Below are positions 44,283 to 56,081 of a stretch of DNA of 64,000 nt, piece by piece. Under the pieces are notes generated by a model that did not search any database, was not told the DNA's origin, and was given only the letters and a program-made list of their open reading frames with translations. How positions within the stretch are numbered: position 1 is the first letter of the stretch; every line of letters starts with the position of its first letter. The position numbers were made by a program, and so were the translations under genes. The stretch is from contig NZ_JABEQJ010000008.1 of the NCBI RefSeq assembly GCF_014174255.1, forward strand, positions 62,001-126,000, read 5' to 3'. The stretch is from Gluconacetobacter sacchari. GTDB taxonomy: Bacteria; Pseudomonadota; Alphaproteobacteria; Acetobacterales; Acetobacteraceae.

Positions 44283-44579
44283 GCCGCCCTGTGCTCCTGG
44301 TGTGTGCGTCCAGGCAATTCTTAATACATGGCCGGTTCATGTTCCATGGCCTGATGCGGATAACGCGGCCGGCCGGACGGCGCGTACTCAACCATGTGTG
44401 ATGAAGCCCGCGGGTTTTAGGCCTCGACAGGCGCGGTGCCGCGCCATAGAGAACGTTAACTAACAAGTGTTTGGTATGGGCGGTGCCGGGCGAACCGGAT
44501 GCGCCGTTGCGCGAAGACCTGTCTGTTTGTTGAAAAAAACCTGGCGAAATCGACGATAATCAGAACGACGGAGGGTGGC
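44283..44579. other. Divergent spacer of the acyl-CoA locus
   Basis: These 297 bp hold no supported gene. GTTAACTAACAAGTGTTTGG (44454-44473) contains a partly palindromic AACAAGTGTT and could be the TetR operator. The AT-rich ATTCTTAATACATGG at 44318-44332 may be promoter sequence. Neither is certain. Confidence 0.3.
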
Positions 44580-45309
44580 ATGCCGTCCTGCTCGGCGCCG
44601 GTGCGCGACATGATGTTCCTGCTGGAGGATGTGTTCGACGCGCCCGCGATCTTCGCGCGACTGCCGGCCCATGCCGAGACCGACCTGGGCATGATCGAAA
44701 GCATCCTGGAGGAAGCGGGGCGTTTCTGCGCGGAGCGGCTCCAGCCGCTGAACGGGAGCGGGGATGTCGAAGGATGCCGGATCGAGAATGGCGTCGTGCG
44801 GACGCCGCGGGGATTCCGCGAGGCCTATGCCGCGTCTCGCGACGGCGGGTGGAGCGGACTGTCGGCCGAGCCTGAGTTCGGCGGGCAGGGCCTGCCGCGC
44901 ACGGTGCAGATCCTGGTCGACGAGATGCTGTCGGCCGCCAACCTGTCCTTCGGGCTGTTTCCCGGCCTGACGCGGGGGGCCTGCGAGGCGCGCCGCCCTG
45001 GCCGAGGCGCTGGGCTTGCTGGAAGGCTGCACGCGCCGGCTGGTCGGGGGCGACCTGTCGTCGCCCGACGAGCGCAATGCCGCCGCCGTCGATTATCTGC
45101 GCCTGTTCGCGCTGGTCTGTTTCGGGTGGGTCTGGCTGCGCATGACCTTGGCGGCGCCGCGGCGCGACGACGGGACGGACCATGGGCGGCGCATCGTGGC
45201 GACGGCGCGTTTCTTCGCCGAGCGGGTGCTGCCCCAGGCGCGGGGGCTGGCGGCGCAGATCGGGGCGGGTGCCGGCGCGATCATGGCGCCGGACGCCGAC
45301 TGGTTCTGA
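44580..45309 (+). pseudogene. Acyl-CoA dehydrogenase with large internal deletion
   Basis: The start (MPSCSAPVRDMMFLLEDVFDAPAIFARLPAHAETDLGMIESILEEAGRFCAERLQPLN) is the N-terminal domain of a roughly 600-residue FadE-like acyl-CoA dehydrogenase. The frame continues to GLFPGLTRGACEA. A second frame then carries the family C-terminal domain (ALAEALGLLEGCTRR, DYLRLFALVCFGWVW, ATARFFAERVLPQARGLAAQI). The FAD and catalytic Glu region is missing, about 350 residues, and the two parts are out of frame. The junction is near 44990-45005. It cannot make an active enzyme. Confidence 0.85.
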
Positions 45310-45351
45310 GCGGCCGGGCAGGCGCGCATCATCATATCGGAGTGTGCGATC

Positions 45352-46539
45352 ATGAATCCTGACGATCCTGTCGTCATTGTTTCGGCGGCCCGGACGCCGG
45401 TCGGCTGGTTTCAGGGGGCGCTGTCGGGTGTGTCGGCGACCGAGCTGGGTGCCGTTGCGATCCGCGGGGCGCTGGATCGGGCCGGGCTGGCGGCCGACAG
45501 GTTCGATACGGTCCTGATGGGGTGCGTGCTGACCGCCGGGCTGCGCCAGAACCCCGCGCGGCAGGCGGCCCATGGCGCCGGCCTGCCGTTCGACGTTGCG
45601 ACCGTGACGGTCAACAAGCTGTGCGGATCGGGGATGATGGCCATTGCGATGGGTCATGACGCGCTGCTGGCCGGCTCGGCCCGGGCGGTGGTGGCCGGCG
45701 GCATGGAATCGATGTCGAACGCGCCCTATCTGCTGCCCGGGGCCCGCCAGGGATACCGCCTGGGCCATGCCGGGGTGGTCGACCACATGTTTCATGACGG
45801 GTTGGAGGATGCGTACGAGCCCGGGCAACTGATGGGGCATTTCGCCGAGCAGACGGCGCGCGACTATGGGTTCGGCCGGGCGGAGCAGGATGATTATGCC
45901 CTGATGACGCTGGCGCGGGCACGCGCGGCGGTGGAGAACGGCGCGTTCGCGGAGGAGATCGTGCCCGTGAGCGTCAGGACCCGCAAGGGGGAGGCCGAGG
46001 TCGCGCGGGACGAGAACCCCCTCAAGGCCCAGCCGGACAAGATTCCGACTTTGCGCCCCGCCTTCGGCAGGGACGGGACCATCACGCCGGCCAGTTCGTC
46101 GGGCATTGCCGATGGCGCGGCGGCTGTGGTGCTGGTGCGTCGGTCCTGGGCCGGGCAGGAGGGATTGCCGGTCTTTGCCGCCATCCGCGCGCTGGCGGTG
46201 CATTCCCAGGCGCCGCGTGCCTTTACTCAGGCGCCGGTGCCGGCCATCCGCAAGGTGCTGGACCGCGCCGGGTGGGCGGTCGGCGACGTGGATCTGTTCG
46301 AGATCAACGAGGCCTTTGCCGTGACCGCCATGGTGGCGCAACGCGACCTGGAGATTCCGCCTGAAAAGCTGAACGTGAATGGCGGGGCCTGTGCGCTGGG
46401 GCATCCGATCGGGGCGACGGGGGCGCGGCTGGTGACCACTCTGCTGCATGCGTTGCGGGCGCGTGGGCTGCGGCGCGGGGTGGCTTCCGCCTGCATCGGC
46501 GGCGGCGAGGCGATCGCGATCGCGGTGGAACGGCCCTGA
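45352..46539 (+). CDS. Acetyl-CoA acetyltransferase (thiolase)
   Basis: This 395-residue thiolase joins or splits acetyl-CoA and acyl-CoA. Cys91 in VNKLCGSGM is the acyl-carrying residue. NGGACALGHPIGATGARL holds the active His, and SACIGGGEAIA holds the second Cys. The length is normal and no break was found, unlike the genes on either side. It lies between two degraded genes of the same locus. It may still work alone or be on the way to loss. Confidence 0.92.
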   Translation: MNPDDPVVIVSAARTPVGWFQGALSGVSATELGAVAIRGALDRAGLAADRFDTVLMGCVLTAGLRQNPARQAAHGAGLPFDVATVTVNKLCGSGMMAIAMGHDALLAGSARAVVAGGMESMSNAPYLLPGARQGYRLGHAGVVDHMFHDGLEDAYEPGQLMGHFAEQTARDYGFGRAEQDDYALMTLARARAAVENGAFAEEIVPVSVRTRKGEAEVARDENPLKAQPDKIPTLRPAFGRDGTITPASSSGIADGAAAVVLVRRSWAGQEGLPVFAAIRALAVHSQAPRAFTQAPVPAIRKVLDRAGWAVGDVDLFEINEAFAVTAMVAQRDLEIPPEKLNVNGGACALGHPIGATGARLVTTLLHALRARGLRRGVASACIGGGEAIAIAVERP

Positions 46540-46599
46540 TGGCCGGGCTCCCCGCCGGCCCCCGGGCAAGAAGCACGAAAAGATGACGAGGGGGACGCC

Positions 46600-47923
46600 A
46601 TGACGGACGAGCGTGTCCGGAGCGTGGATTCCAGGCGCCGGGAAATGGGTGCGGACGAGGCGGCACGCCTGATCGCGCATGGCGACGTGGTGGGAATGGG
46701 TGGTTTCGGCCCCGGCGGCACGCCCAAGGCGCCGCCCCGGGCGCTGGCCGCCCGGGCCGTCGCGCGGCATGACCGGGGCGAGCCGTTCACGATCAGCCTG
46801 CTGACCGGTGCGTCCACCACGCCGGACGTGGCTGATCCGCGAAGATGGCGGCATCGTGCCCACCCTGGCCATCGGCAATGCCAAGACCTGGCTGGAAATG
46901 GCCGACCGGGTCATCATCGAGGTCAATGGCTGGCATACGACCGAGCTGGAGGGCATCCACGACATCTGGAGCGGCGACCGGGAAACCGGGGGGCGGATCC
47001 CGGCCCTGGGCTGGGCGGGGGAGCGGATCGGCGATGCGGTCCTGCGGGTCGCGCCCGAAAAGGTCGCGGCGGTGGTGCGGACCGACGAGGGCGATCTGGG
47101 CCAGTCGTTTCGCGCCGTGCCGGATGCCGCGCTGATCGCCGGCCATATCGTCGAATTCCTGAAGCACGAGGTGGCGCGCGGCCGGTTGCCCGCCACGCTG
47201 CCGCCTCTGCAATCGGGGGTGGGCAATATCGCCAATGCCGTCATGACCGCGCTGGCCGACGCCCCCTTTACCGACCTGACCGCCTATACCGAGGTGATCC
47301 AGGACGGGATGCTGGACATGGTCCGCAGCGGCAAGATGCGTGTCGTCTCCGGCGCGTCGCTCTATCTGAGCCGCGAGCAGGCGGCGGCGGCCAATGCGGA
47401 CATGGCCTTTCTGCGCCCCCATCTGCTGCTGCGGCAGCAGGAGGTCAGCAACAATCCGGCGGTGGTGCGCGGCCTGAACTGCATTGCGATGAATGCCGGG
47501 ATCGAGGCGGACATCTACGGCAACGTCAATTCCTCCCGCGTCATGGGATCGCGGGTGCAGAACGGCATCGGCGGGTCGGGCGATTTCGCGCGGAGCGCGC
47601 TGCTGTCGATCTTCATGCTGCCGTCGGTTGCGCGGGGCGGGTCCATTTCCTCGATCGTGCCGATGGTGTCGCATGTCGACAACATCAACCAGGACGTTCA
47701 TGTGCTGGTGACCGAACGGGGGCTGGCGGACCTGCGCGGCCTGTCGGCGCGGCAGCGGGCGCGGGTGATCGCCGAGAACTGCGCGCATCCCGATTTCCGG
47801 CCGCGACTGCGCGACTACATGGCGCGCGCCCAATCCCTGGGCGGCGGCGACACGCCCCATCTGCTGGGCGAAGCCCTGTCGTGGCATCAGCGCTTTATCG
47901 AAACGGGATCGATGCGCCTTTGA
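46600..47923 (+). pseudogene. AarC-type succinyl-CoA:acetate CoA-transferase, internal deletion and frameshift
   Basis: The first frame reads MTDERVRSVDSRRREMGADEAARLIAHGDVVGMGGFGPGGTPKAPPRALAAR and stays homologous to SLLTGASTTPDV. A second frame resumes with LIREDGGIVPTLAIGNAKTWLEMADRVIIEVNGWHTTELEGIHDIW and runs to the end (LSWHQRFIETGSM). It keeps IEADIYGNVNSSRVMGS with the catalytic Glu. AarC of Acetobacter is about 505 residues. Here about 65 residues between GAST and EDGGIVPT are missing and the register changes near 46830. AarC completes the acetate-resistance citric acid cycle of acetic acid bacteria. This copy is probably inactive. Confidence 0.85.
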
Positions 47924-47941: not shown

Positions 47942-48361
47942 ATGGACGGCAATGACGACGGACCTGACGACGGCGACGAACTGACGATCCGGGTCATCGC
48001 CATGCCGGCGGATACCAATCCGACGGGGGATATCTTCGGCGGCTGGCTGGTGTCGCAGATGGACCTGGCCGCCAGCACCACCGCCGCGCAATGCGCGCGG
48101 GGACGATGCGCCACCGTGGCGATCGACGAGCTGAGGTTTCATCGGCCGGTGGCGGTGGGCGACGAAGTCAGCATCTATATCCGCCTGCTGAAGGTCGGGC
48201 GGACCTCGATGACCATCGGCGTGACGGCGTGGCGGCGGGTGCGGCACACCAGGCAGGTGCAGAAGGTCACGCAGGCGCGGTTCGTCTTCGTCGCGCTCGA
48301 TGGCGATGGCCGGCCGCGGCCGGTCGATCAGCCGCCCGACGCGGCGCCGGTGGCGCCGTAG
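47942..48361 (+). CDS. YciA-like hotdog acyl-CoA thioesterase
   Basis: This is a 139-residue single hotdog domain. MPADTNPTGDIFGGWLVSQMDLAAS carries the catalytic Asp of the YciA/ACOT group, and VAIDELRFHRPVAVGDEVSIYIRLLKVGRTSMTIGV is the conserved core. It releases CoA from acyl-CoA in the cytosol. It lies 18 bp after the broken CoA-transferase gene and overlaps the tail of the convergent oxygenase by 34 bp. Confidence 0.88.
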   Translation: MDGNDDGPDDGDELTIRVIAMPADTNPTGDIFGGWLVSQMDLAASTTAAQCARGRCATVAIDELRFHRPVAVGDEVSIYIRLLKVGRTSMTIGVTAWRRVRHTRQVQKVTQARFVFVALDGDGRPRPVDQPPDAAPVAP

Positions 48362-49200
48362 CGCACCCGCTTTTCCTTCAGCCAGCGGCGATAGGCGACC
48401 GAGAGCGAGTCCGCGCGGGTCGGGATTTCGGCGCGCGCGTCCAGCGGCAGCAGGCGGGGGCGCTGGTTTTCGAGAATGATCCGGTCCTGGAGGAAGATCT
48501 TCTGCTGGAACTGGATCAGGTCGGCCTGGGCCGAGATGTCGTCGATCAGGAACATGACCGGGTGGGCGCGGCAGCGCTCGGGCTGTGTCGGCTGGACGAA
48601 CAGGGCGATGACGTCGGGGCGCAGCGCGTCGTTGGGGCAGGTCTTGTACAGCAGGGTCACGAACGGCGAGGCGACGCGGTAGATATAGCCCGTGTCCTGC
48701 CCGGCCGCCGCCGACAGGGCGGCCTGCGGCTGGTGGAAGCGGCAGTCGGTGGCCCAGACCTCGTCGACGTCGCGCCGCCATTCGGCGTGGTAGCGGCTGA
48801 CCTCGGTCTGGGGTTCGGCGCCCAGGATGTTGGTGTGGACGAAGGGGAAATGCGCCATGTCGAGGAAGTTCTCGACCACGCGCAGGCCCGAGGCATGGAC
48901 GTCGATCGAGCCGCAGCAGACCAGCCGGCGATCGGGCTCGTCGGCCTCGGGGATGGCGAGCGGCGTGGCGGGGGGCGTGCCGAGGCTGGTCCACAGGCAG
49001 CCATGGCGTTCGGCGACCGGCAGGGGGGTGTCGCGCCCCTCGGCCAGGACCTGTATCGTGCCGCAGGCGGCGCGCCGGATCGTCAGCGCCACGCCGAGCA
49101 GGCGCGTGCGGGTGGCGGCCGGTCCCGTCGTTTCGAGAAAGCCGACCGCGTGCCAGGCATCGAGCACGGCGCGGTCTTCCGGGTCCACGCGATGGGACAT
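48328..49200 (-). CDS. Rieske-oxygenase catalytic subunit lacking its Rieske cluster (NdmC-like)
   Basis: This 290-residue protein has the mononuclear iron site of Rieske oxygenases: ENFLDMAHFPFVH, with Asp114, His117 and His122 in a D-x2-H-x4-H pattern. The later IFLQDRIILENQRP has a likely ligand Asp239. The N-terminal cluster motifs (CxH and CxxH) are absent: the sequence passes from RLLGVALTIRRAACGTIQVLAE directly to PLPVAERHGCLW. This layout is known for NdmC, the 7-methylxanthine N-demethylase subunit, which borrows a Rieske domain from NdmD. It is the last gene of the BMP ABC importer operon. The alternative is a simple in-frame deletion of a normal oxygenase. Confidence 0.85.
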   Translation of the reverse strand: MSHRVDPEDRAVLDAWHAVGFLETTGPAATRTRLLGVALTIRRAACGTIQVLAEGRDTPLPVAERHGCLWTSLGTPPATPLAIPEADEPDRRLVCCGSIDVHASGLRVVENFLDMAHFPFVHTNILGAEPQTEVSRYHAEWRRDVDEVWATDCRFHQPQAALSAAAGQDTGYIYRVASPFVTLLYKTCPNDALRPDVIALFVQPTQPERCRAHPVMFLIDDISAQADLIQFQQKIFLQDRIILENQRPRLLPLDARAEIPTRADSLSVAYRRWLKEKRVRYGATGAASGG

Positions 49201-49210
49201 TGGATTCTCC

Positions 49211-50149
49211 TTACCGCACGTCGCGGTGGTAGGGCACGCCGAGCGCCGCCGGGGCGGCCATGATGCGGCGCATGCGGTGCCAGACGATCACCGGCACGAT
49301 GATGAACGCGATCGTGCCCAGATAGGGCAGCATGTTGAGGAAAGCGGGGGCGATCGGCCAGTTGCGCGCCTGGCCGACGAAGGACAGCGCGGTGACCAGC
49401 CCGAACAGCAGGCCCGACAGGGTGGCGCCGAAGGGCCGGTAGCCGGCGAAGATGACCAGGGCCAGCGCGATCCAGCCCCTGCCCGCCACCAGCCCTTCGG
49501 ACCAGACGGGGACATAGGTGAGGGTGAGGTAGCCGCCGGCGGCGCCGGCCAGGCCGGCGCCCAGCGTGACGTACCAGAAGCGCAGCGCGGTGACCGGCAG
49601 GCCGGCGGCGTCGGCCGCCGCCGGGTTTTCGCCCACCGCGCGCATCGCCAGCCCGTGGCGGGTGTGGAACATCACCCAGTGCGCCAGGGCCGGCAGGACC
49701 AGGTAGATCAGGTAGACGGGCAGGTTCTGGCCGAAGACGGCCGGGCCGATCACCGGCAGGGAGGACAGGCCGGGAATGGGCACGCGGCCGAAGGTGGCGG
49801 GTGAGGGCACGCCCGCGTAGTCGTGGCCGATGGCGGCCGACAGGCCGAGGCCGAGGAACGTGACCGCCAGCCCGCACAGCACCTGGTTGGCGCGGACGAT
49901 GACGGTGGCGAAGGCGAAGGCCATGCCGCCGGCGACACCGGCCAGGGTCGCCGCCAGCAGACCCAGCCACGGGTCGGGGGTGGCCACCACGGTGATGATG
50001 GCGACCACCGCGCCCAGCGACATCAGGCCCTCGACGCCCAGGTTGGTAACGCCGACGCGTTCGGCCAGGACCTCGCCCAGCGCCGCCAGCGCCAGGACGC
50101 CGCCGGCCAGGACGGCGGTGGAGAGCATGCCGGTCAGCAGGTCGATCAT
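49211..50149 (-). CDS. BMP-type ABC importer permease (second permease)
   Basis: This 312-residue inner-membrane protein of the BPD_transp_2 family has about 8-9 spans. It begins MIDLLTGMLSTAVLAGGVLALAALGEVLAERVGVTNLGVEGLM and contains FHTRHGLAMRAVGENPAAADAAGL, the coupling-helix EAA-like loop. It resembles the second permease (NupQ/YufQ) of nucleoside importers. Its ATG overlaps the stop of the first permease (ATGA). The oxygenase gene follows 10 bp downstream. Confidence 0.92.
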   Translation of the reverse strand: MIDLLTGMLSTAVLAGGVLALAALGEVLAERVGVTNLGVEGLMSLGAVVAIITVVATPDPWLGLLAATLAGVAGGMAFAFATVIVRANQVLCGLAVTFLGLGLSAAIGHDYAGVPSPATFGRVPIPGLSSLPVIGPAVFGQNLPVYLIYLVLPALAHWVMFHTRHGLAMRAVGENPAAADAAGLPVTALRFWYVTLGAGLAGAAGGYLTLTYVPVWSEGLVAGRGWIALALVIFAGYRPFGATLSGLLFGLVTALSFVGQARNWPIAPAFLNMLPYLGTIAFIIVPVIVWHRMRRIMAAPAALGVPYHRDVR

Positions 50150-51216
50150 GGCCGGGCCTCCGCGCCCGTGGTGGCTCGGCGGACCGTGACGGGGCGGTAA
50201 TGGGCCAGCTCGTCGGCGATGGCGATCATGAACAGCACCAGTCCCGTGATGGCCAGGACGGCCGACGCCGTGAGCTGCTGGGTTTGCAGCACGATGCCCG
50301 CATCGAGGATGAAGGCCATCAGCAGGGCGGCGGGCAGCACGTTGAGGCAGGATCCGCGTGCCAGCACCGCGACCACGATGCCGAAATAGCCGAAATTGTT
50401 GGCGAGCCCGCCTTGCAGCCGATGCACGGTGCCCGCGACCTCGAACATGCCCGCCAGCGCCGCCAGTCCGCCCGACAGCAGCATCGCGCCCAGGATGCGG
50501 GCGCGCACCGGAATGCCGGCATAGCGGGCGGCCTGGTCGTTCGCGCCGCCGATGGTGATCTGATAGCCCCAGCGCGTGCGGGTGGTCAGCCAGGCGAGCG
50601 CCAGCACGATGGCGAGGGCAATGGGGAAGCCCCAATGCACCACGCCCCAGATTTCGGGGATGCGGACCGGCAGCCGGCCGGTCGAGGCCAGCGCGCCGGT
50701 GACGCGGTCGTGCCACGGGCCGACCGCCAGATAGGTGGTGAGCAGCCCGGCGACGAAATTGAGCAGCAGGGTGGTGATGATCTCGTTGACGCCGGCATAG
50801 GCGCGGGCCAGGGCGGGGAGCAGGATCCAGCCCATGCCGCAGGCGATGCCGCAGGCGGCCATCAGCGGCAGCACCAGCCAGGCCGGGCCGGGCAGGAACA
50901 GGCCGACCGCCGTGGCGCCGATGGCGCCGGCGTAGAACTGGCCCTCGGCGCCGATATTCCACACGCCGATCCGCCCGGTGACGGTCACGGCCGCGCCGGT
51001 GAGCAGCAGGGGGGTGAGGAACAGCGCCAGGTCTTCCAGCCCGAAGCGGGAGCCCACGGCGGAGCGCACCACCAGGTCGGCCAGCAGGCGCGGGTCGCGG
51101 CCCGACAGGGCGAGAAACAGGGTGGTGATCGCCAGGGCGGCGGCGATGGCCCCCGCGCGCCAGGCCAGCCGGCGGGCCGGCGTGACGGTGGGCAGACGGT
51201 GCAGCGTGCCGGCCAT
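50146..51216 (-). CDS. BMP-type ABC importer permease (first permease)
   Basis: This 356-residue inner-membrane protein of the BPD_transp_2 family has about 9-10 spans. VTGRIGVWNIGAEGQFYAGAIGATAVGL is the typical nucleoside-permease motif, and GYQITIGGANDQAARYAGIPVRARIL the ATPase-contacting loop. It resembles NupP/YufP. It pairs with the 49211-50149 permease as a heterodimer. It overlaps the ATPase gene by TGATG upstream. Confidence 0.92.
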   Translation of the reverse strand: MAGTLHRLPTVTPARRLAWRAGAIAAALAITTLFLALSGRDPRLLADLVVRSAVGSRFGLEDLALFLTPLLLTGAAVTVTGRIGVWNIGAEGQFYAGAIGATAVGLFLPGPAWLVLPLMAACGIACGMGWILLPALARAYAGVNEIITTLLLNFVAGLLTTYLAVGPWHDRVTGALASTGRLPVRIPEIWGVVHWGFPIALAIVLALAWLTTRTRWGYQITIGGANDQAARYAGIPVRARILGAMLLSGGLAALAGMFEVAGTVHRLQGGLANNFGYFGIVVAVLARGSCLNVLPAALLMAFILDAGIVLQTQQLTASAVLAITGLVLFMIAIADELAHYRPVTVRRATTGAEARP

Positions 51217-52838
51217 CAGGCGTGTCCTCCGCCCGATGTCGGGCCGTTCGGTGCCGATCGGCCGCCCATCAGCAGGCCGATCGTTTCCATATCCGCCGTC
51301 GCGGCGTCGATCGTGGCCATCAGCCGGCCGTGGAACAGGACGCCGATCCGGTCGGCGACGTTCAGCAGTTCCTCCAGGTCCTCGGACACCAGGACCACCG
51401 CCACGCCCTGGTCGCGCAGGTCGGTCAGATAGCGCAGCACGGTGGCGATGGCGCCGATATCCAGGCCCCGGCTGGGGTAGGCCGCGACCAGCACCCGGCT
51501 GGCGATGCGGATCTCGCGCCGTGCCACCAGACGCTGCTGGTTGCCGCCGGACAGGTTGCGGATGGGGGTGGCGAGGTCGGGCACGCGGACCTCGGCGGCC
51601 GCGACGATCGTGCCGGCCAGGCGGGCGGCGGCGGCGCGGTCGTAGAGGCCGTGGCGGCCGATCGGCGGCCGGGCATATTCGCGCAGCGCCATGTTGTCGG
51701 TGATGTCCAGCGACGGCGCCAGGCCGCTGCGCAGCCGGTCCTCGGGGATATGGCCGATGCCGGCGCGGGCGAAGGCGGCCGGGTCGGCCAGCGGGACCGG
51801 CGCGCCGTCGAGCAGGACGGTGCCCGCCGAAAGGGGCATCATGCCGGTGAGGACCTGGGTAAGCTCGCGCTGGCCGTTGCCGGCCACGCCGGCGATGCCG
51901 AGGATTTCGCCGCCATGCACGTCCAGCGTGACGTCGCGCAGGGTTTCGATGCCGCGCGCATCGCGGCAGGAGGCGCCGCGCAGGCTCAGGACGGGCGCGG
52001 CGGCGCCAGGGTCGCGGGCGATCGCGGCGGCGCCGGGGGCGCGGGCGCGCAGGTCGCGGCGCACGATCTCGCGCCCGACCATGATGGTGGCGAGGCCGGC
52101 GGCGGTGCAGTCGGCCGTGCGCCAGGTGCCGACATGGCGGCCGGCGCGCAGGATGCTGATGCGGTCGGAGATGTCGATGACCTCGTCCAGCTTGTGGCTG
52201 ATCAGGATCACGGCGTTGCCCCGGGCGCGGAAGGCGCGCAGGGCGCGGAACAGGTCGCGCGTTTCGGCCGGGGTCAGCACCGCCGTCGGTTCGTCGAGGA
52301 TCAGCAGGCGGGCCTGGCGAGCCAGCACGCGCAGGATTTCCACCCGCTGCTGCTCGCCCGCCGACAGGTCGGCGACGACGGCGTCGGGGCGGACGGAAAA
52401 ACCGAACCGCTCGGACAGGGCGCGGGTGCGGGATTCCAGTGTTTTCGCCGAGGCGCGGAACGGGGTTTCGCGCCAGCCGAGATGGATGTTCTCGGCCACC
52501 GTGAAGGCGGGGACCAGCTTGAAATGCTGGTGGACCATGCCGATGCCGGCGCGGATCGCGTCCTGCGGGGCGGCGAAGCTCTGGCCGTAGCCGTCGAGGA
52601 TGATCTCGCCGCCGTCGGGCTGGTAGATGCCGGTCACGACATTCATCAGCGTGGACTTGCCGGCGCCGTTTTCGCCCAGCAGGGCGTGGATCTCGCCCGG
52701 CGCGACGTCCAGGCTGACATCCTGGTTGGCGATCACGCCGGGGAAATATTTGCAGATCCCCTGCAATTGCAGGATCGGCGGCGTGCCGGGGGCGATGGGG
52801 GGCGGGCCGTCGGCCGGGGCGTGGCGCGGGTCAGTCAA
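51216..52838 (-). CDS. ABC importer ATPase with two nucleotide-binding domains (BMP/nucleoside type)
   Basis: This is a protein of about 540 residues with tandem ATPase domains, as in MglA, RbsA and NupO. The first has ALLGENGAGKST (Walker A), LSAGEQQRVEILR (signature), LLILDEPTAVLTP (Walker B) and SHKL (His switch). The second has AGVAGNGQRELTQ in place of a classic Walker A, RNLSGGNQQRLVARRE, and LVAAYPSRGLDIGA with a degenerate Walker B. That asymmetry is normal for the group. A TTG at 52838 is the likely start, overlapping the binding-protein gene by 8 bp. Confidence 0.9.
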   Translation of the reverse strand: MTDPRHAPADGPPPIAPGTPPILQLQGICKYFPGVIANQDVSLDVAPGEIHALLGENGAGKSTLMNVVTGIYQPDGGEIILDGYGQSFAAPQDAIRAGIGMVHQHFKLVPAFTVAENIHLGWRETPFRASAKTLESRTRALSERFGFSVRPDAVVADLSAGEQQRVEILRVLARQARLLILDEPTAVLTPAETRDLFRALRAFRARGNAVILISHKLDEVIDISDRISILRAGRHVGTWRTADCTAAGLATIMVGREIVRRDLRARAPGAAAIARDPGAAAPVLSLRGASCRDARGIETLRDVTLDVHGGEILGIAGVAGNGQRELTQVLTGMMPLSAGTVLLDGAPVPLADPAAFARAGIGHIPEDRLRSGLAPSLDITDNMALREYARPPIGRHGLYDRAAAARLAGTIVAAAEVRVPDLATPIRNLSGGNQQRLVARREIRIASRVLVAAYPSRGLDIGAIATVLRYLTDLRDQGVAVVLVSEDLEELLNVADRIGVLFHGRLMATIDAATADMETIGLLMGGRSAPNGPTSGGGHA

Positions 52839-53955
52839 GGCCGGTGACTCCCTCGACCGCCCAGTCCCACTGATAGATCCGGGCATCGTCCATCACCTCG
52901 CCGGCCGTCACGCGGAGGCGGCCGGCGGCGTCGCGGATCGGGCCGCGAAACGGGTTGTAGCCGGCCATGATCCGCGCGCGCATCGCATCGGCGCGGGCCG
53001 CGACCTCCGGCGGGACGGTGCGGCCCCATGGGTCGCGGTCCACCCCGTGGCCGAGGGTGAGGAAATGGCCCTCGGGCCGCCAGGTGCCGGCCAGGCGGGC
53101 GCGCACCTGCTCGACATAATAATCGCGGAAATCCAGCGTGACGGAACTGACATAGGCCTCCGGCCCGTATCGGCGCATGTCGGTGTTCCACATCGCCGCC
53201 TTGATGCCGCGCTGTTCGGCCACGCGCAGATAGGCGGGCTCGTCCATGATGCCGCACAGGAAGTCGCAGCCATTCTCGGCCAGCGCGGTGCCGGCCTGGG
53301 TCGCGGCCTGCGGGTCGAACCAGGCATTGATCGAGATCGCCTGCATGGTGACCGCCGGGTTGACCGAGCGCGCGCCCAGCAGCACCGCATTGGTGCCGGC
53401 ATAGACGGACGGAATGGGAAACGAGCCGACGAAGCCGATCTTGTTGGTGCGGGTCATCAGTCCGGCGGCGATGCCGATGACGTAGCTGGCATACCAGTGG
53501 GTGATGTAATACCAGCCCAGATTGCCGGTGACGGCATGGCCGTCGCATTCCACGAACGCCACGTCGGGGGCGCGGTCCGACACGTCGCGGATGAAATCGC
53601 CGTAGTTCGAGGTGGCGATGACCATCTGCGCGCCCTCGGCCACGAACTGGCGGAAGATGCGCGTGGCGTCGGCAGAGTAGGGCACGCTTTCGACATAGAT
53701 CGTGCGCAGGCGGGGAAAGGCCTTTCGTACCGCCTGCACGCCCTGGTCGTGCATCATCGTCCAGCCGCCGTCGGTGACCGGGCTGGTATGGCCGAAGGCG
53801 ACCAGCGCGTCGGCCTCGGCCACTGGGGGCAGGAGGCGGCCCTGCGCCCGCAGGCCGGGCGGGCGCAGCAGGCCGCCCCCGGCCGCGCCGGCCGCCAGCC
53901 CCAGCAGATGGCGCCGCGATGCGAGCAGCCGCCCGTTCGGCGCGCGCGTGATCAT
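52831..53955 (-). CDS. BMP-family substrate-binding protein (purine-nucleoside-type)
   Basis: This 374-residue protein starts MITRAPNGRLLASRRHLLGLAAGAAGG, an export signal with a twin-arginine-like SRRHLLGL. The BMP/PnrA-like fold shows DALVAFGHTSPVTDGGWTMMHDQGVQAVRKAF, VIATSNYGDFIRDVSDRAPDVAFVECDG and NKIGFVGSFPIPSVYAGTNAVLLGARSVNP. BMP proteins bind purine nucleosides and, in some species, other heterocycles. It leads the importer operon (binding protein, ATPase, two permeases, oxygenase) and lies 104 bp downstream of pncA. Confidence 0.92.
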   Translation of the reverse strand: MITRAPNGRLLASRRHLLGLAAGAAGGGLLRPPGLRAQGRLLPPVAEADALVAFGHTSPVTDGGWTMMHDQGVQAVRKAFPRLRTIYVESVPYSADATRIFRQFVAEGAQMVIATSNYGDFIRDVSDRAPDVAFVECDGHAVTGNLGWYYITHWYASYVIGIAAGLMTRTNKIGFVGSFPIPSVYAGTNAVLLGARSVNPAVTMQAISINAWFDPQAATQAGTALAENGCDFLCGIMDEPAYLRVAEQRGIKAAMWNTDMRRYGPEAYVSSVTLDFRDYYVEQVRARLAGTWRPEGHFLTLGHGVDRDPWGRTVPPEVAARADAMRARIMAGYNPFRGPIRDAAGRLRVTAGEVMDDARIYQWDWAVEGVTGLD

Positions 53956-54059
53956 GCCCGACCTGGAATGGTCATGGTTCGGTATTCCCCCCTCGATGAT
54001 CCCGGGCCGGTCCCACCCGGCGCCGGGTCGTTCCCCCCGGAACAGGCCGTGCCTCCGTC

Positions 54060-54662
54060 CTACAGGCCGGCGAGATCGGCGGCCTGGACACGTTCGATGC
54101 CGTGCTGCGCCAGGACCTGCCATGTGGCCTGCGGGTCGGGGCCGACCGCGCGACATGCATCTTCGACCACGATCGCCGCGAAACCAAGGGCCTTCGCGTC
54201 GATGGCGGTGGCGCGCACGCAATAATCCAGCGCCAGCCCGACGATGAAGACACGGTTTATGCCCAGTCCGGCCAGCCACGAATCGAGCCCGGTGCGCGTG
54301 GCGCCGTCATTGTCCAGGAAGGCCGAATAGCTGTCGATATCCGGGTCGCGGCCCTTGCGGATCACCATGCCGATTCGCGCCTGGTGCAGCGCGGCCGCCA
54401 GTTCGGCGCCATGCGTGCCCGCCACGCAATGGTCGGGCCAGTGATCGGGCGTGGCCTTTCGCCCGTGGGTGCTGGCGAAGGAGACATGGCCGTGCGGATG
54501 CCAGTCCTGGCTGGCCGCCTGCTGGCCGAAGGGCAGGAGGGTCAGGTGGTTGACGACCGGGATGACCGCGTCGCCCTGCGGCACGGCGAGGGCGCCGCCG
54601 GGCAGGAAATCGTTCTGGAGATCGATGGCCAGCAGGGCGTCATGGACGGTGACGTGGATCAT
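54060..54662 (-). CDS. pncA: Nicotinamidase/pyrazinamidase
   Basis: This 200-residue isochorismatase-fold enzyme has the PncA signature. DLQNDFLPGGALAVPQGD carries the catalytic Asp, QDWHPHGHVSFASTHG and WPDHCVAGTHGAEL the metal-site residues, VIRKGRDPDIDSYSAF the Lys, and GLALDYCVRATAIDA the nucleophilic Cys. It converts nicotinamide to nicotinate. Placed between the importer operon and the Rieske-GST pair, it could serve NAD salvage or act on a product of that pathway (for example a demethylated pyridine). The start is ATG 54662. Confidence 0.92.
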   Translation of the reverse strand: MIHVTVHDALLAIDLQNDFLPGGALAVPQGDAVIPVVNHLTLLPFGQQAASQDWHPHGHVSFASTHGRKATPDHWPDHCVAGTHGAELAAALHQARIGMVIRKGRDPDIDSYSAFLDNDGATRTGLDSWLAGLGINRVFIVGLALDYCVRATAIDAKALGFAAIVVEDACRAVGPDPQATWQVLAQHGIERVQAADLAGL

Positions 54663-54777
54663 GGCGGACCTCCGCTCGGTACGGTTGCGGAACAGGGATG
54701 GCACGTTTCGGACGGTCGGGCTATCGGGGATTCGGTGCCGTGGGCGGGCATGGGCCGGGGGCGAAGGAGAGGCGGGG

Positions 54778-55458
54778 ATGAGCGTGACGCGTGAGGGCGG
54801 ATGGTATCCGCTGATGCTGTCGGCGGATCTGGAGACGGGGACGGTGGCCGGCAGTGCCGTGCCGGGGCGGGACCTCGCGGTGTGGCGGGACGGGCAGGGG
54901 CGGGCGCATGTGTGGGACGATCGCTGCCCGCATCGCGGCATGCGGCTGAGCCTGGGCTTTGTGCGCGAGGGAGCGCTGGCGTGCCTGTATCATGGCTGGC
55001 GCTTCGGGGCGGAGGGGCGGTGCGTGCATATTCCGGCGCATCCGGACCTGGCGCCGCCGGGGACGATCCGCACCGTGCCGTTGCCTGTCGCGGAGCGCCA
55101 TGGGCTGGTCTGGGCCTCGGTCGGCGCGGCCGGGGTCCAGCCGGAGGGCGATCCGGCGATGGAGGCGGCCGCATGGCTGCCGGTGCGCTCGGTAAGGATC
55201 GAGGCGCCGTGGCGGGATGTGGCGCGCGCGGTCGGGATGCCGGAAGGGCGGCGGGCCGCCGTGCTGGACCGCGATGTGGACGGCCGGGTGCTGGCGGCCC
55301 TGCTGCCGGTCGGGGCGGGGGCGTGCATGCTGCATCTACTGGCCGCCGCGCCGGCCGGGGTGGAGCGGCTGCATGATCTGGCCGATTGGGGGCGGGATGT
55401 GCGGTCGCGGGCGGAGGAACGGGCCGGGCGGGCCTGTCTGGCGGGGATCGTGGCATGA
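54778..55458 (+). CDS. Stand-alone Rieske [2Fe-2S] protein without a mononuclear iron site
   Basis: This 226-residue protein has its Rieske cluster in DRCPHRGMRLSLGFVREGALACLYHGWRF, with ligands Cys50, His52, Cys69 and His72. The part after residue 120 keeps PLPVAERHGLVWASVG, then diverges. No D-x2-H-x4-H site is present. It can only carry electrons, so it complements the oxygenase at 48328-49200, which has the iron site but no cluster. It uses ATG 54778 with GAAGGAGAGG upstream and overlaps the next gene by ATGA. Confidence 0.9.
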   Translation: MSVTREGGWYPLMLSADLETGTVAGSAVPGRDLAVWRDGQGRAHVWDDRCPHRGMRLSLGFVREGALACLYHGWRFGAEGRCVHIPAHPDLAPPGTIRTVPLPVAERHGLVWASVGAAGVQPEGDPAMEAAAWLPVRSVRIEAPWRDVARAVGMPEGRRAAVLDRDVDGRVLAALLPVGAGACMLHLLAAAPAGVERLHDLADWGRDVRSRAEERAGRACLAGIVA

Positions 55459-56081
55459 GCGACCTGGTGCTGCACGACGACGATCTGGACGAGGATTGCT
55501 ATCGGGCGCGGCTGTTCCTGTCGCTGCTGGGGCTGGAGGCGCGCCGGGTCGCGGTCGATGTCGTGCCCGGCGGCGAGCAGGACGGGCCGGCATTTCGGGC
55601 CGTTTCGCCGGCCGGGATGCTGCCGGTGCTGCGGATCGACGGGCAGAAGGTCTGCGGGGCCGGGGCCGTGCTGCTGGCGCTGGCGCATGGGCGGCCGGAG
55701 TGGCTGCCCGGGGAGCGCGCGGATTTCGCGCGGGTGGCGCACTGGCTGCACTTCGCCGGCGGGCCGTTGCGGGCGACGCTGCTGATGCGGCGGGCCTGCC
55801 TGTTCGGCGGCGCGGGGGACGCGCCATCCGCCCGCCGGCGGGCGGCGGTGGGGGCGTTGCGGATCATGGAGGACCATCTGGCCCAGCGGCGGCTGGAGGG
55901 CGGGACGTGGTTCGTGGGCGAGGGGGCGACGGTGGCGGATGTCGCGCTGTTTCCCGCCGCCGCGCTGTGTCGGGACTGGGGGGAGGAGTATTCCGCCTAT
56001 CCCGCGCTGCGGCGCTGGGTCCGCGCGGTGCGGGCGCTGCCGGGCTTTGTCGGCATGCCCGGCATCCCGGATTATGGCTGA
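55455..56081 (+). CDS. Glutathione-S-transferase-like protein (NdmE-like position)
   Basis: This 208-residue protein is GST-like. The thioredoxin-like N-domain (DEDCYRARLFLSLLGLEARRVAVDVVPGG, then AVSPAGMLPVLRIDG) and helical C-domain (WFVGEGATVADVALFPAAALCRDWG) fit the family. In the Pseudomonas caffeine pathway a GST-like protein, NdmE, holds the cluster-free oxygenase and the Rieske protein together. The gene here is translationally coupled to the Rieske gene (ATGA). That context, rather than glutathione chemistry, suggests a structural role. Confidence 0.85.
   Translation: MSDLVLHDDDLDEDCYRARLFLSLLGLEARRVAVDVVPGGEQDGPAFRAVSPAGMLPVLRIDGQKVCGAGAVLLALAHGRPEWLPGERADFARVAHWLHFAGGPLRATLLMRRACLFGGAGDAPSARRRAAVGALRIMEDHLAQRRLEGGTWFVGEGATVADVALFPAAALCRDWGEEYSAYPALRRWVRAVRALPGFVGMPGIPDYG

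What the first reader, a model, noticed from the sequence alone, without database searches (positions are those of the whole stretch)
48328..56081. Split Rieske oxygenase built into a BMP-type ABC importer locus (Ndm-like system)
Seen: a cluster-free iron oxygenase ends the importer operon. A Rieske protein without iron site and a GST-like protein form a coupled pair on the other strand, with pncA between. Known: NdmC (no cluster), NdmD (carries the Rieske) and NdmE (GST-like scaffold) form the 7-methylxanthine demethylase of Pseudomonas putida CBB5, and BMP proteins bind purine nucleosides. Inference: uptake and oxidative N-demethylation of an N-methylated purine, or of a pyridine such as N-methylnicotinamide given pncA. 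A dedicated importer and a Rieske part free of its reductase would be a new arrangement.
Basis: partly seen in the sequence, partly recalled or inferred. Interest (0 to 1): 0.82.

Follow-up and report, generated by a model that had tools for sequence, protein, structure and literature searches.

The report
Two-part iron oxygenase with own importer
In an acetic-acid-type bacterium and many of its relatives, an oxygen-using enzyme has had its two metal centres divided between two related proteins, each keeping only one of them, and the genes sit beside a dedicated importer, probably to take up and strip methyl groups from purine-like compounds.

Summary
The oxygenase (48328-49200, -) has the mononuclear-iron motif but no Rieske ligands; the divergent pair is a Rieske protein without iron site (54778-55458, +) and an overlapping GST-like gene (55455-56081, +). 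It is not a local deletion: 107 of 107 oxygenases examined keep DxxHx4H and none has CxH..CxxH; 93 of 93 free Rieske proteins show the reverse. Of 103 loci, 98 hold both partners; the Rieske is free in 94 and reductase-fused (NdmD style) in 4. A quick tree puts the window in a large sister clade of the NdmC-type clade, without reductase-fused members among the rows sampled. New here: the confident Rieske model aligns with complete Rieske oxygenases over 220 of 226 residues, so it looks like an alpha subunit that lost its iron site, complementary to the oxygenase that lost its cluster. Deaminase and Mo-hydroxylase neighbours favour a purine-type substrate; pncA occurs in 6 of 103 loci, so the pyridine reading is weak. 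Function, complex and reductase are untested. Verdict: real, widespread, a new variant of the NdmCDE kind.

The parts
48328..49200 (-). Oxygenase subunit (290 aa): mononuclear iron site, vestigial Rieske domain without cluster ligands; last gene of the importer row, 10 bp after the second permease
49211..50149 (-). ABC importer permease (BPD_transp_2)
   Evidence: given as a longer ORF
50146..51216 (-). ABC importer permease (BPD_transp_2)
51216..52886 (-). ABC importer ATPase (longest ORF; start uncertain)
   Evidence: ABC_tran 3.1e-47
52831..53955 (-). BMP-type substrate-binding protein (374 aa) with an SRRHLLG twin-arginine-like leader
   Evidence: Bmp 3.1e-30; nearest solved structures 6pi5 (1.1e-62) and 3s99 (1.3e-53); leader read from the sequence
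54060..54662 (-). pncA (nicotinamidase), first gene of the minus-strand row; lineage-specific passenger or addition
   Evidence: NCBIfam PRK11609, 187.5 bits against cut-off 174; in 6 of 103 loci
54663..54777 (.). Divergent intergenic region between pncA and the Rieske gene; the consensus scan marked no promoter-like site in it
   Evidence: coordinates; sequence; scan
54778..55458 (+). Free-standing Rieske protein (226 aa): [2Fe-2S] ligands C50, H52, C69, H72 and a shrunken C-terminal domain without iron ligands
55455..56081 (+). GST-like protein (208 aa), overlaps the Rieske stop by 4 bp; G-A stands where many GSTs have E-S (recalled)
   Evidence: GST_N/GST_C matches; alignment

Best explanation
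A three-part Rieske oxygenase of the NdmCDE kind, built from two complementary, half-dead relatives of one ancestral alpha subunit. The oxygenase keeps the iron site and has lost the cluster-binding loops; the Rieske protein keeps the cluster and has lost the iron site; a GST-like protein acts as scaffold. Electrons would enter the Rieske protein from a reductase encoded elsewhere and pass across the subunit interface to the iron, as they pass between neighbouring subunits in ordinary alpha3 rings (recalled). The BMP importer brings in the substrate, most likely an N-methylated purine-type base, which is oxidatively demethylated and then deaminated or oxidised. Shown: genes, motifs, conservation, homology. 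Predicted: folds. Inferred: complex, electron path, substrate, reaction, scaffold role.
For: Complementary motifs: 107 of 107 oxygenases against 93 of 93 free Rieske proteins. Profile alignment of the two families, probability 96.4%, E 1.4e-9, with the gap in the oxygenase at the cluster loops and the gap in the Rieske protein at the iron-site segment. Models of both (pLDDT 92.3 and 93.6) align with complete Rieske oxygenases nearly end to end. Rieske and GST partners in 98 of 103 loci. Of 94 free-Rieske loci, 76 hold BMP, 66 a deaminase-type amidohydrolase and 20 a Mo-hydroxylase relative; one amidohydrolase directly after the oxygenase passes the guanine deaminase cut-off. Outside that set, L182 runs Rieske-oxygenase-GST-reductase-ABC-BMP-FrmA in one direction, and L183 Rieske-oxygenase-GST-FrmA: a formaldehyde enzyme beside free-Rieske systems fits demethylation. 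NdmCDE itself is reported as three of each subunit, with NdmC needing its partners for solubility (PMC10380055, passages).
Against: No complex was modelled. The C-terminal half of the Rieske protein alone matches the oxygenase only weakly by sequence (probability 27%, E 7e-4), and Foldseek's own alignments of the Rieske model have large rmsd (5.4-8.8 A in the 50 rows shown), so the shrunken-domain claim rests mainly on the predicted fold and the gapped alignment. No reductase and no frmA lies in the window locus; no NdmD-type reductase part was found in any of the 94 free-Rieske stretches, and FrmA was over threshold in 1 of 103 loci, a fused one. 22 of 94 free loci show no deaminase, Mo-hydroxylase or pncA and 18 of 94 no BMP in the stretch held, among them several full 20-kb stretches. 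No substrate was tested.
Confidence: 0.57

Rival explanations
1. Same split enzyme, but it hydroxylates a purine ring carbon or acts on another modified purine rather than removing a methyl group, as HpxD-type enzymes are said to do.
For: Guanine-deaminase-type and Mo-hydroxylase neighbours fit purine catabolism in general; two listed plasmid hits at 28-30% identity are annotated HpxD, xanthine hydroxylase subunit. The window has no frmA.
Against: HpxD-annotated hits are far more distant than the NdmC-type proteins at 46-51%; FrmA sits beside free-Rieske systems in L182 and L183.
Confidence: 0.22
2. In the Gluconacetobacter/Acetobacter clade the system has switched to an N-methyl pyridine such as 1-methylnicotinamide; demethylation gives nicotinamide, which the neighbouring PncA turns into nicotinate.
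For: pncA lies first in the minus-strand gene row, and occurs in exactly the six loci that form the window's clade, where many other clades carry deaminases.
Against: It is the only nicotinamidase over the cut-off in the genome, so NAD salvage explains it; the other 97 loci lack it; within the clade the oxygenases stay 68-90% identical to the window's, and the two nearest solved BMP proteins are not named as pyridine binders.
Confidence: 0.14
3. The GST-like protein and Rieske protein serve another oxygenase, and the cluster-less oxygenase is a binding protein or relic beside an importer.
For: 5 of 103 loci have no Rieske or GST in the stretch held, L037 with 14 kb on each side, and the oxygenase and nearest Rieske gene are on opposite strands in 54 of 94 free loci.
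Against: The iron motif is present in all 107 oxygenases, both partners occur in 98 of 103 loci, and oxygenase and Rieske lie on one strand in 40 of 94 free loci. Of the five exceptions, L098, L102 and L135 are of the second-oxygenase type, and L035 starts 3 kb before the oxygenase at the end of the record.
Confidence: 0.07

Closest known systems
NdmCDE, 7-methylxanthine N7-demethylase of Pseudomonas putida CBB5
   Same: Cluster-less non-heme iron subunit, Rieske domain on another polypeptide, GST-like third subunit; 46-51% (oxygenase), 33-39% (Rieske part, local alignments, three of four NdmD-type proteins) and 33-37% (GST) identity to the proteins of four fused clusters
   Different: Rieske protein stands alone without a reductase; oxygenase falls in a sister clade; BMP importer in the same gene row; no frmA in the window locus. 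CBB5's own sequences were not compared; the comparison used P. caffeinilytica, P. putida, Klebsiella and Sinorhizobium clusters.
SxtT / GxtA (SxtDIOX) saxitoxin-pathway Rieske oxygenases
   Different: One chain carries both metal centres
NdmA / NdmB methylxanthine demethylases
   Same: Rieske N-demethylases; PDB matches to both halves
   Different: Intact alpha subunits; the window oxygenase is 24-31% identical to four intact oxygenases of ndm-type clusters
BMP-type binding proteins 6pi5 (named atrazine periplasmic binding protein) and 3s99 (basic membrane lipoprotein)
   Same: Nearest solved relatives of the binding protein
   Different: Their gene neighbourhoods were not examined here

Membership tests
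NdmCDE-type split Rieske oxygenase | Catalytic subunit with the iron motif but no Rieske ligands | tested here: met
   107 of 107 with DxxHx4H, 0 of 107 with CxH..CxxH, window included
NdmCDE-type split Rieske oxygenase | Rieske domain on a separate polypeptide | tested here: met
NdmCDE-type split Rieske oxygenase | That polypeptide also carries the reductase (NdmD) | tested here: not met
   226 aa, no reductase model hit; no NdmD reductase part in any of the 94 free stretches
NdmCDE-type split Rieske oxygenase | GST-like third subunit | tested here: met
   33-37% to NdmE-type proteins
NdmCDE-type split Rieske oxygenase | Oxygenase lies inside the NdmC-type clade | tested here: not met
   clade of 81 rows (SH-aLRT 95) apart from the 16-row clade with all 12 fused rows (90); quick tree with long-branch warnings
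NdmCDE-type split Rieske oxygenase | Forms a three-protein complex | not testable with these tools
   no complex prediction tool
NdmCDE-type split Rieske oxygenase | N7-demethylates 7-methylxanthine | not testable with these tools
   needs an assay
Ordinary one-chain Rieske oxygenase alpha subunit | Both metal centres in one chain | tested here: not met
BMP-type ABC importer | Bmp binding protein with ABC_tran ATPase and two BPD_transp_2 permeases | tested here: met
Putative vitamin B6 ABC transporter (NF047927-NF047930) | Score over NCBIfam cut-offs | tested here: not met
   48.7/400, 137.5/465, 140.7/400 and 463/670 bits
Nicotinamidase PncA | PRK11609 over cut-off | tested here: met
   187.5 against 174
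Active glutathione transferase | E-S pair for glutathione binding (recalled) | tested here: inconclusive
   the window has G-A at the aligned position; E-S in 9 of 93 rows; no activity known

The most novel reading that the evidence does not exclude
A Rieske oxygenase whose two metal centres have been parcelled out to two paralogous alpha subunits, each a decayed copy of the other, making cross-subunit electron transfer obligatory, held together by a GST that no longer needs glutathione. The free form would be the common state in alphaproteobacteria, with the caffeine enzyme NdmCDE a branch in which the Rieske pseudo-subunit is fused to a reductase. The importer-linked versions would salvage methylated nucleobases such as those from RNA turnover.
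Probability: 0.4. Interest if true: 0.8.

Novelty: new variant of a known kind. Interest (0 to 1): 0.63.

Why it matters
NdmCDE was described as the first reported case of a Rieske domain split off the oxygenase and fused to the reductase (PMC4408171, passages). These loci show that the split lineage is broad, that the detached Rieske part stands alone in most loci sampled, and that it seems to be a complementary pseudo-subunit rather than a simple ferredoxin. If right, it gives a natural separation of the two metal centres of a Rieske oxygenase, useful for testing how electrons cross subunits, and it points to an unassigned importer-linked, probably purine-directed pathway in many alphaproteobacteria, rhizobia among them.

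Tried and rejected
Local deletion of a Rieske domain: rejected, none of 107 oxygenases examined has the ligands. Pyridine substrate from pncA: downgraded. B6 importer: scores far below cut-offs. Reductase partner: eight matches in the genome, five of them strong (E 3e-48 or better); four of the five lie 0.7-4.2 kb from one of the genome's own Rieske domains, and C18:7179 has none on its contig; none could be assigned. Sequence match of the Rieske C-terminal half alone to the oxygenase: weak. Cytokinin and pterin substrates: considered from recall; two paper searches on cytokinin gave no listing that looked relevant, and they were dropped. Papers: 10 searches, seen as listings; the free-Rieske arrangement was not seen in a listing or in the passages read of PMC4408171, PMC8055839 and PMC10380055. 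The library lacks most subscription papers, including the original NdmCDE paper, so this does not show that it is unpublished.

The tree left out 21 loci by hand as near-duplicates and is a quick tree with long-branch warnings. 'Free' means that no NdmD-type reductase part was found in the stretch held.

Full report
What is there. The region holds two divergent gene rows. On the minus strand: pncA, a BMP binding protein, an ABC ATPase (start uncertain), two permeases and the oxygenase; 104 bp separate pncA from BMP, the permeases overlap by 4 bp, and 10 bp separate the second permease from the oxygenase. On the plus strand: a Rieske protein and a GST-like protein overlapping by 4 bp. Family searches support each assignment: VanA_C for the oxygenase, Rieske for the second, GST for the third, Bmp, ABC_tran and BPD_transp_2 for the importer, and nicotinamidase over its cut-off for pncA. 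The window's Rieske domain is the best scoring of 11 PF00355 matches in the genome.

Not a local accident. In the window's family, 22 of 200 genomes match the oxygenase at 1e-20. Fourteen of these, the window's own included, have a near full-length match at 46% identity or more; the other eight match at 31-34% only, from about residue 60 on. Ten of ten such distant matches read out, from genomes with and without the split form, carry a Rieske motif. In all 13 further split loci fetched, the Rieske protein and GST are found with the oxygenase, and 11 of 13 have BMP. A plasmid search found 273 records with a match, 193 of them Rhizobium or Sinorhizobium. In a sample of 398 genomes of the phylum, 18 pass 1e-60; three of these are intact oxygenases (L175-L177), leaving 15. 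By my reading, 6 of the 15 have the Rieske followed by a reductase part on the same strand, 8 have it free (one of them, G527, with a separate reductase gene after the GST), and in one (G580) no Rieske lies in the short stretch held.

Division of the metal centres. Over 103 loci (the window, 9 plasmid loci, 13 family loci, 80 contig loci), 98 have a Rieske partner, free in 94 and fused to a reductase in 4 (P. caffeinilytica, P. putida, Klebsiella, Sinorhizobium); the same 98 have GST, and 78 have BMP. In the extracted proteins, 107 of 107 oxygenases have DxxHx4H and none has CxH..CxxH; 93 of 93 free Rieske proteins under 300 aa have CxH..CxxH and none has DxxHx4H. Left out of the 93 were the four fused NdmD proteins and three reading frames of 300 aa or more, two of which are other Rieske genes in L055 and L056.

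Relation to NdmCDE. A review describes NdmC as cluster-less, NdmD as the reductase carrying an extra Rieske cluster and NdmE as GST-like, calls the split-and-fused arrangement the first reported, and mentions 18 further organisms with ndmCDE homologues of unknown function, among them Klebsiella and, predominantly, Sinorhizobium and Mesorhizobium (PMC4408171, passages). [quoted passage not shown] The window proteins are 46-51% (oxygenase) and 33-37% (GST) identical to the fused-cluster proteins, and the Rieske protein aligns with NdmD N-termini at 33-39% over 112-206 residues for three of four NdmD proteins (the fourth was cut at its annotated start there, and one search found its Rieske part with an upstream start). 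In a quick tree of 115 rows, the 98 cluster-less oxygenases lie on one side of the root branch (support 86). One clade holds all 12 fused rows plus 4 free (support 90); the other holds 81 rows, 76 free and 5 unseen, the window among them (support 95); one free row, L097_2167, stands apart on a long branch. So it works like NdmCDE and is a sister type, not a member in the strict sense.

Substrate and pathway. Among 94 free loci, 66 have a deaminase-type amidohydrolase, 20 a Mo-hydroxylase relative and 76 BMP; 22 have no deaminase, Mo-hydroxylase or pncA in the stretch held. The R. tumorigenes gene after the oxygenase passes the guanine deaminase cut-off (419.9 against 375.4 bits); the R. johnstonii amidohydrolase scores best with the 8-oxoguanine deaminase model but under its cut-off. 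The nearest solved BMP proteins are 6pi5 and 3s99; that 3s99 holds adenine is recalled, not checked. The window genome has a guanine deaminase over the cut-off elsewhere (C9) and four Mo-hydroxylase relatives. L182 carries Rieske, oxygenase, GST, a separate reductase, the ABC genes, BMP and FrmA in one direction, and L183 Rieske, oxygenase, GST, FrmA. These two are the best hints for demethylation and for the missing reductase, but they are two loci picked out of the phylum sample, and the oxygenase frame of L182 lacks most of the N-terminal remnant. pncA occurs in six loci that form the window's own clade and is the only nicotinamidase over cut-off in the genome.

Verdict. The finding is real and larger than stated: a widespread reductase-free form of the NdmC-type split oxygenase, with a predicted complementary decay of two alpha-subunit copies. 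Function, complex and electron donor remain untested.

Noticed in passing
24 loci with the GMC gene: L036, L098, L102, L107, L109-L113, L115, L116, L118-L122, L124-L126, L128, L130, L135, L142, L143: A long extra cluster recurs in most of them: Rieske-GST-LysR-two-part TPP decarboxylase (sulfopyruvate/phosphonopyruvate decarboxylase type)-GMC oxidoreductase-amidohydrolase-second cluster-less oxygenase-Mo-hydroxylase. It looks like an unassigned catabolic pathway in which two catalytic subunits may share one Rieske protein.
   Followed up: partly
L042 14001-15812; L166, L168, L169: Two cluster-less oxygenases in tandem before one NdmD-type protein in Sinorhizobium and unnamed relatives, again suggesting a shared Rieske donor.
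   Followed up: no
window 46568-47923: The succinate CoA-transferase gene lacks about 180 bp against the congener L044 and its reading frame is split: a broken gene or an assembly fault.
   Followed up: partly
window 44499-45362: An acyl-CoA-dehydrogenase-like start that seems to shift frame and lose its middle before the thiolase-like gene (read; families recalled, not searched).
   Followed up: no
window 53850-53955: The BMP protein has a twin-arginine-like leader (SRRHLLG); the R. tumorigenes relative passes the TAT_signal_seq model, 17.5 against 16.7 bits.
   Followed up: no
L182 5784-6476: The oxygenase frame there begins near the start of the catalytic domain, so even the vestigial Rieske part seems lost.
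   Followed up: no
L175-L177: Intact one-chain Rieske oxygenases next to BMP genes in another family: a BMP link exists without the split.
   Followed up: no
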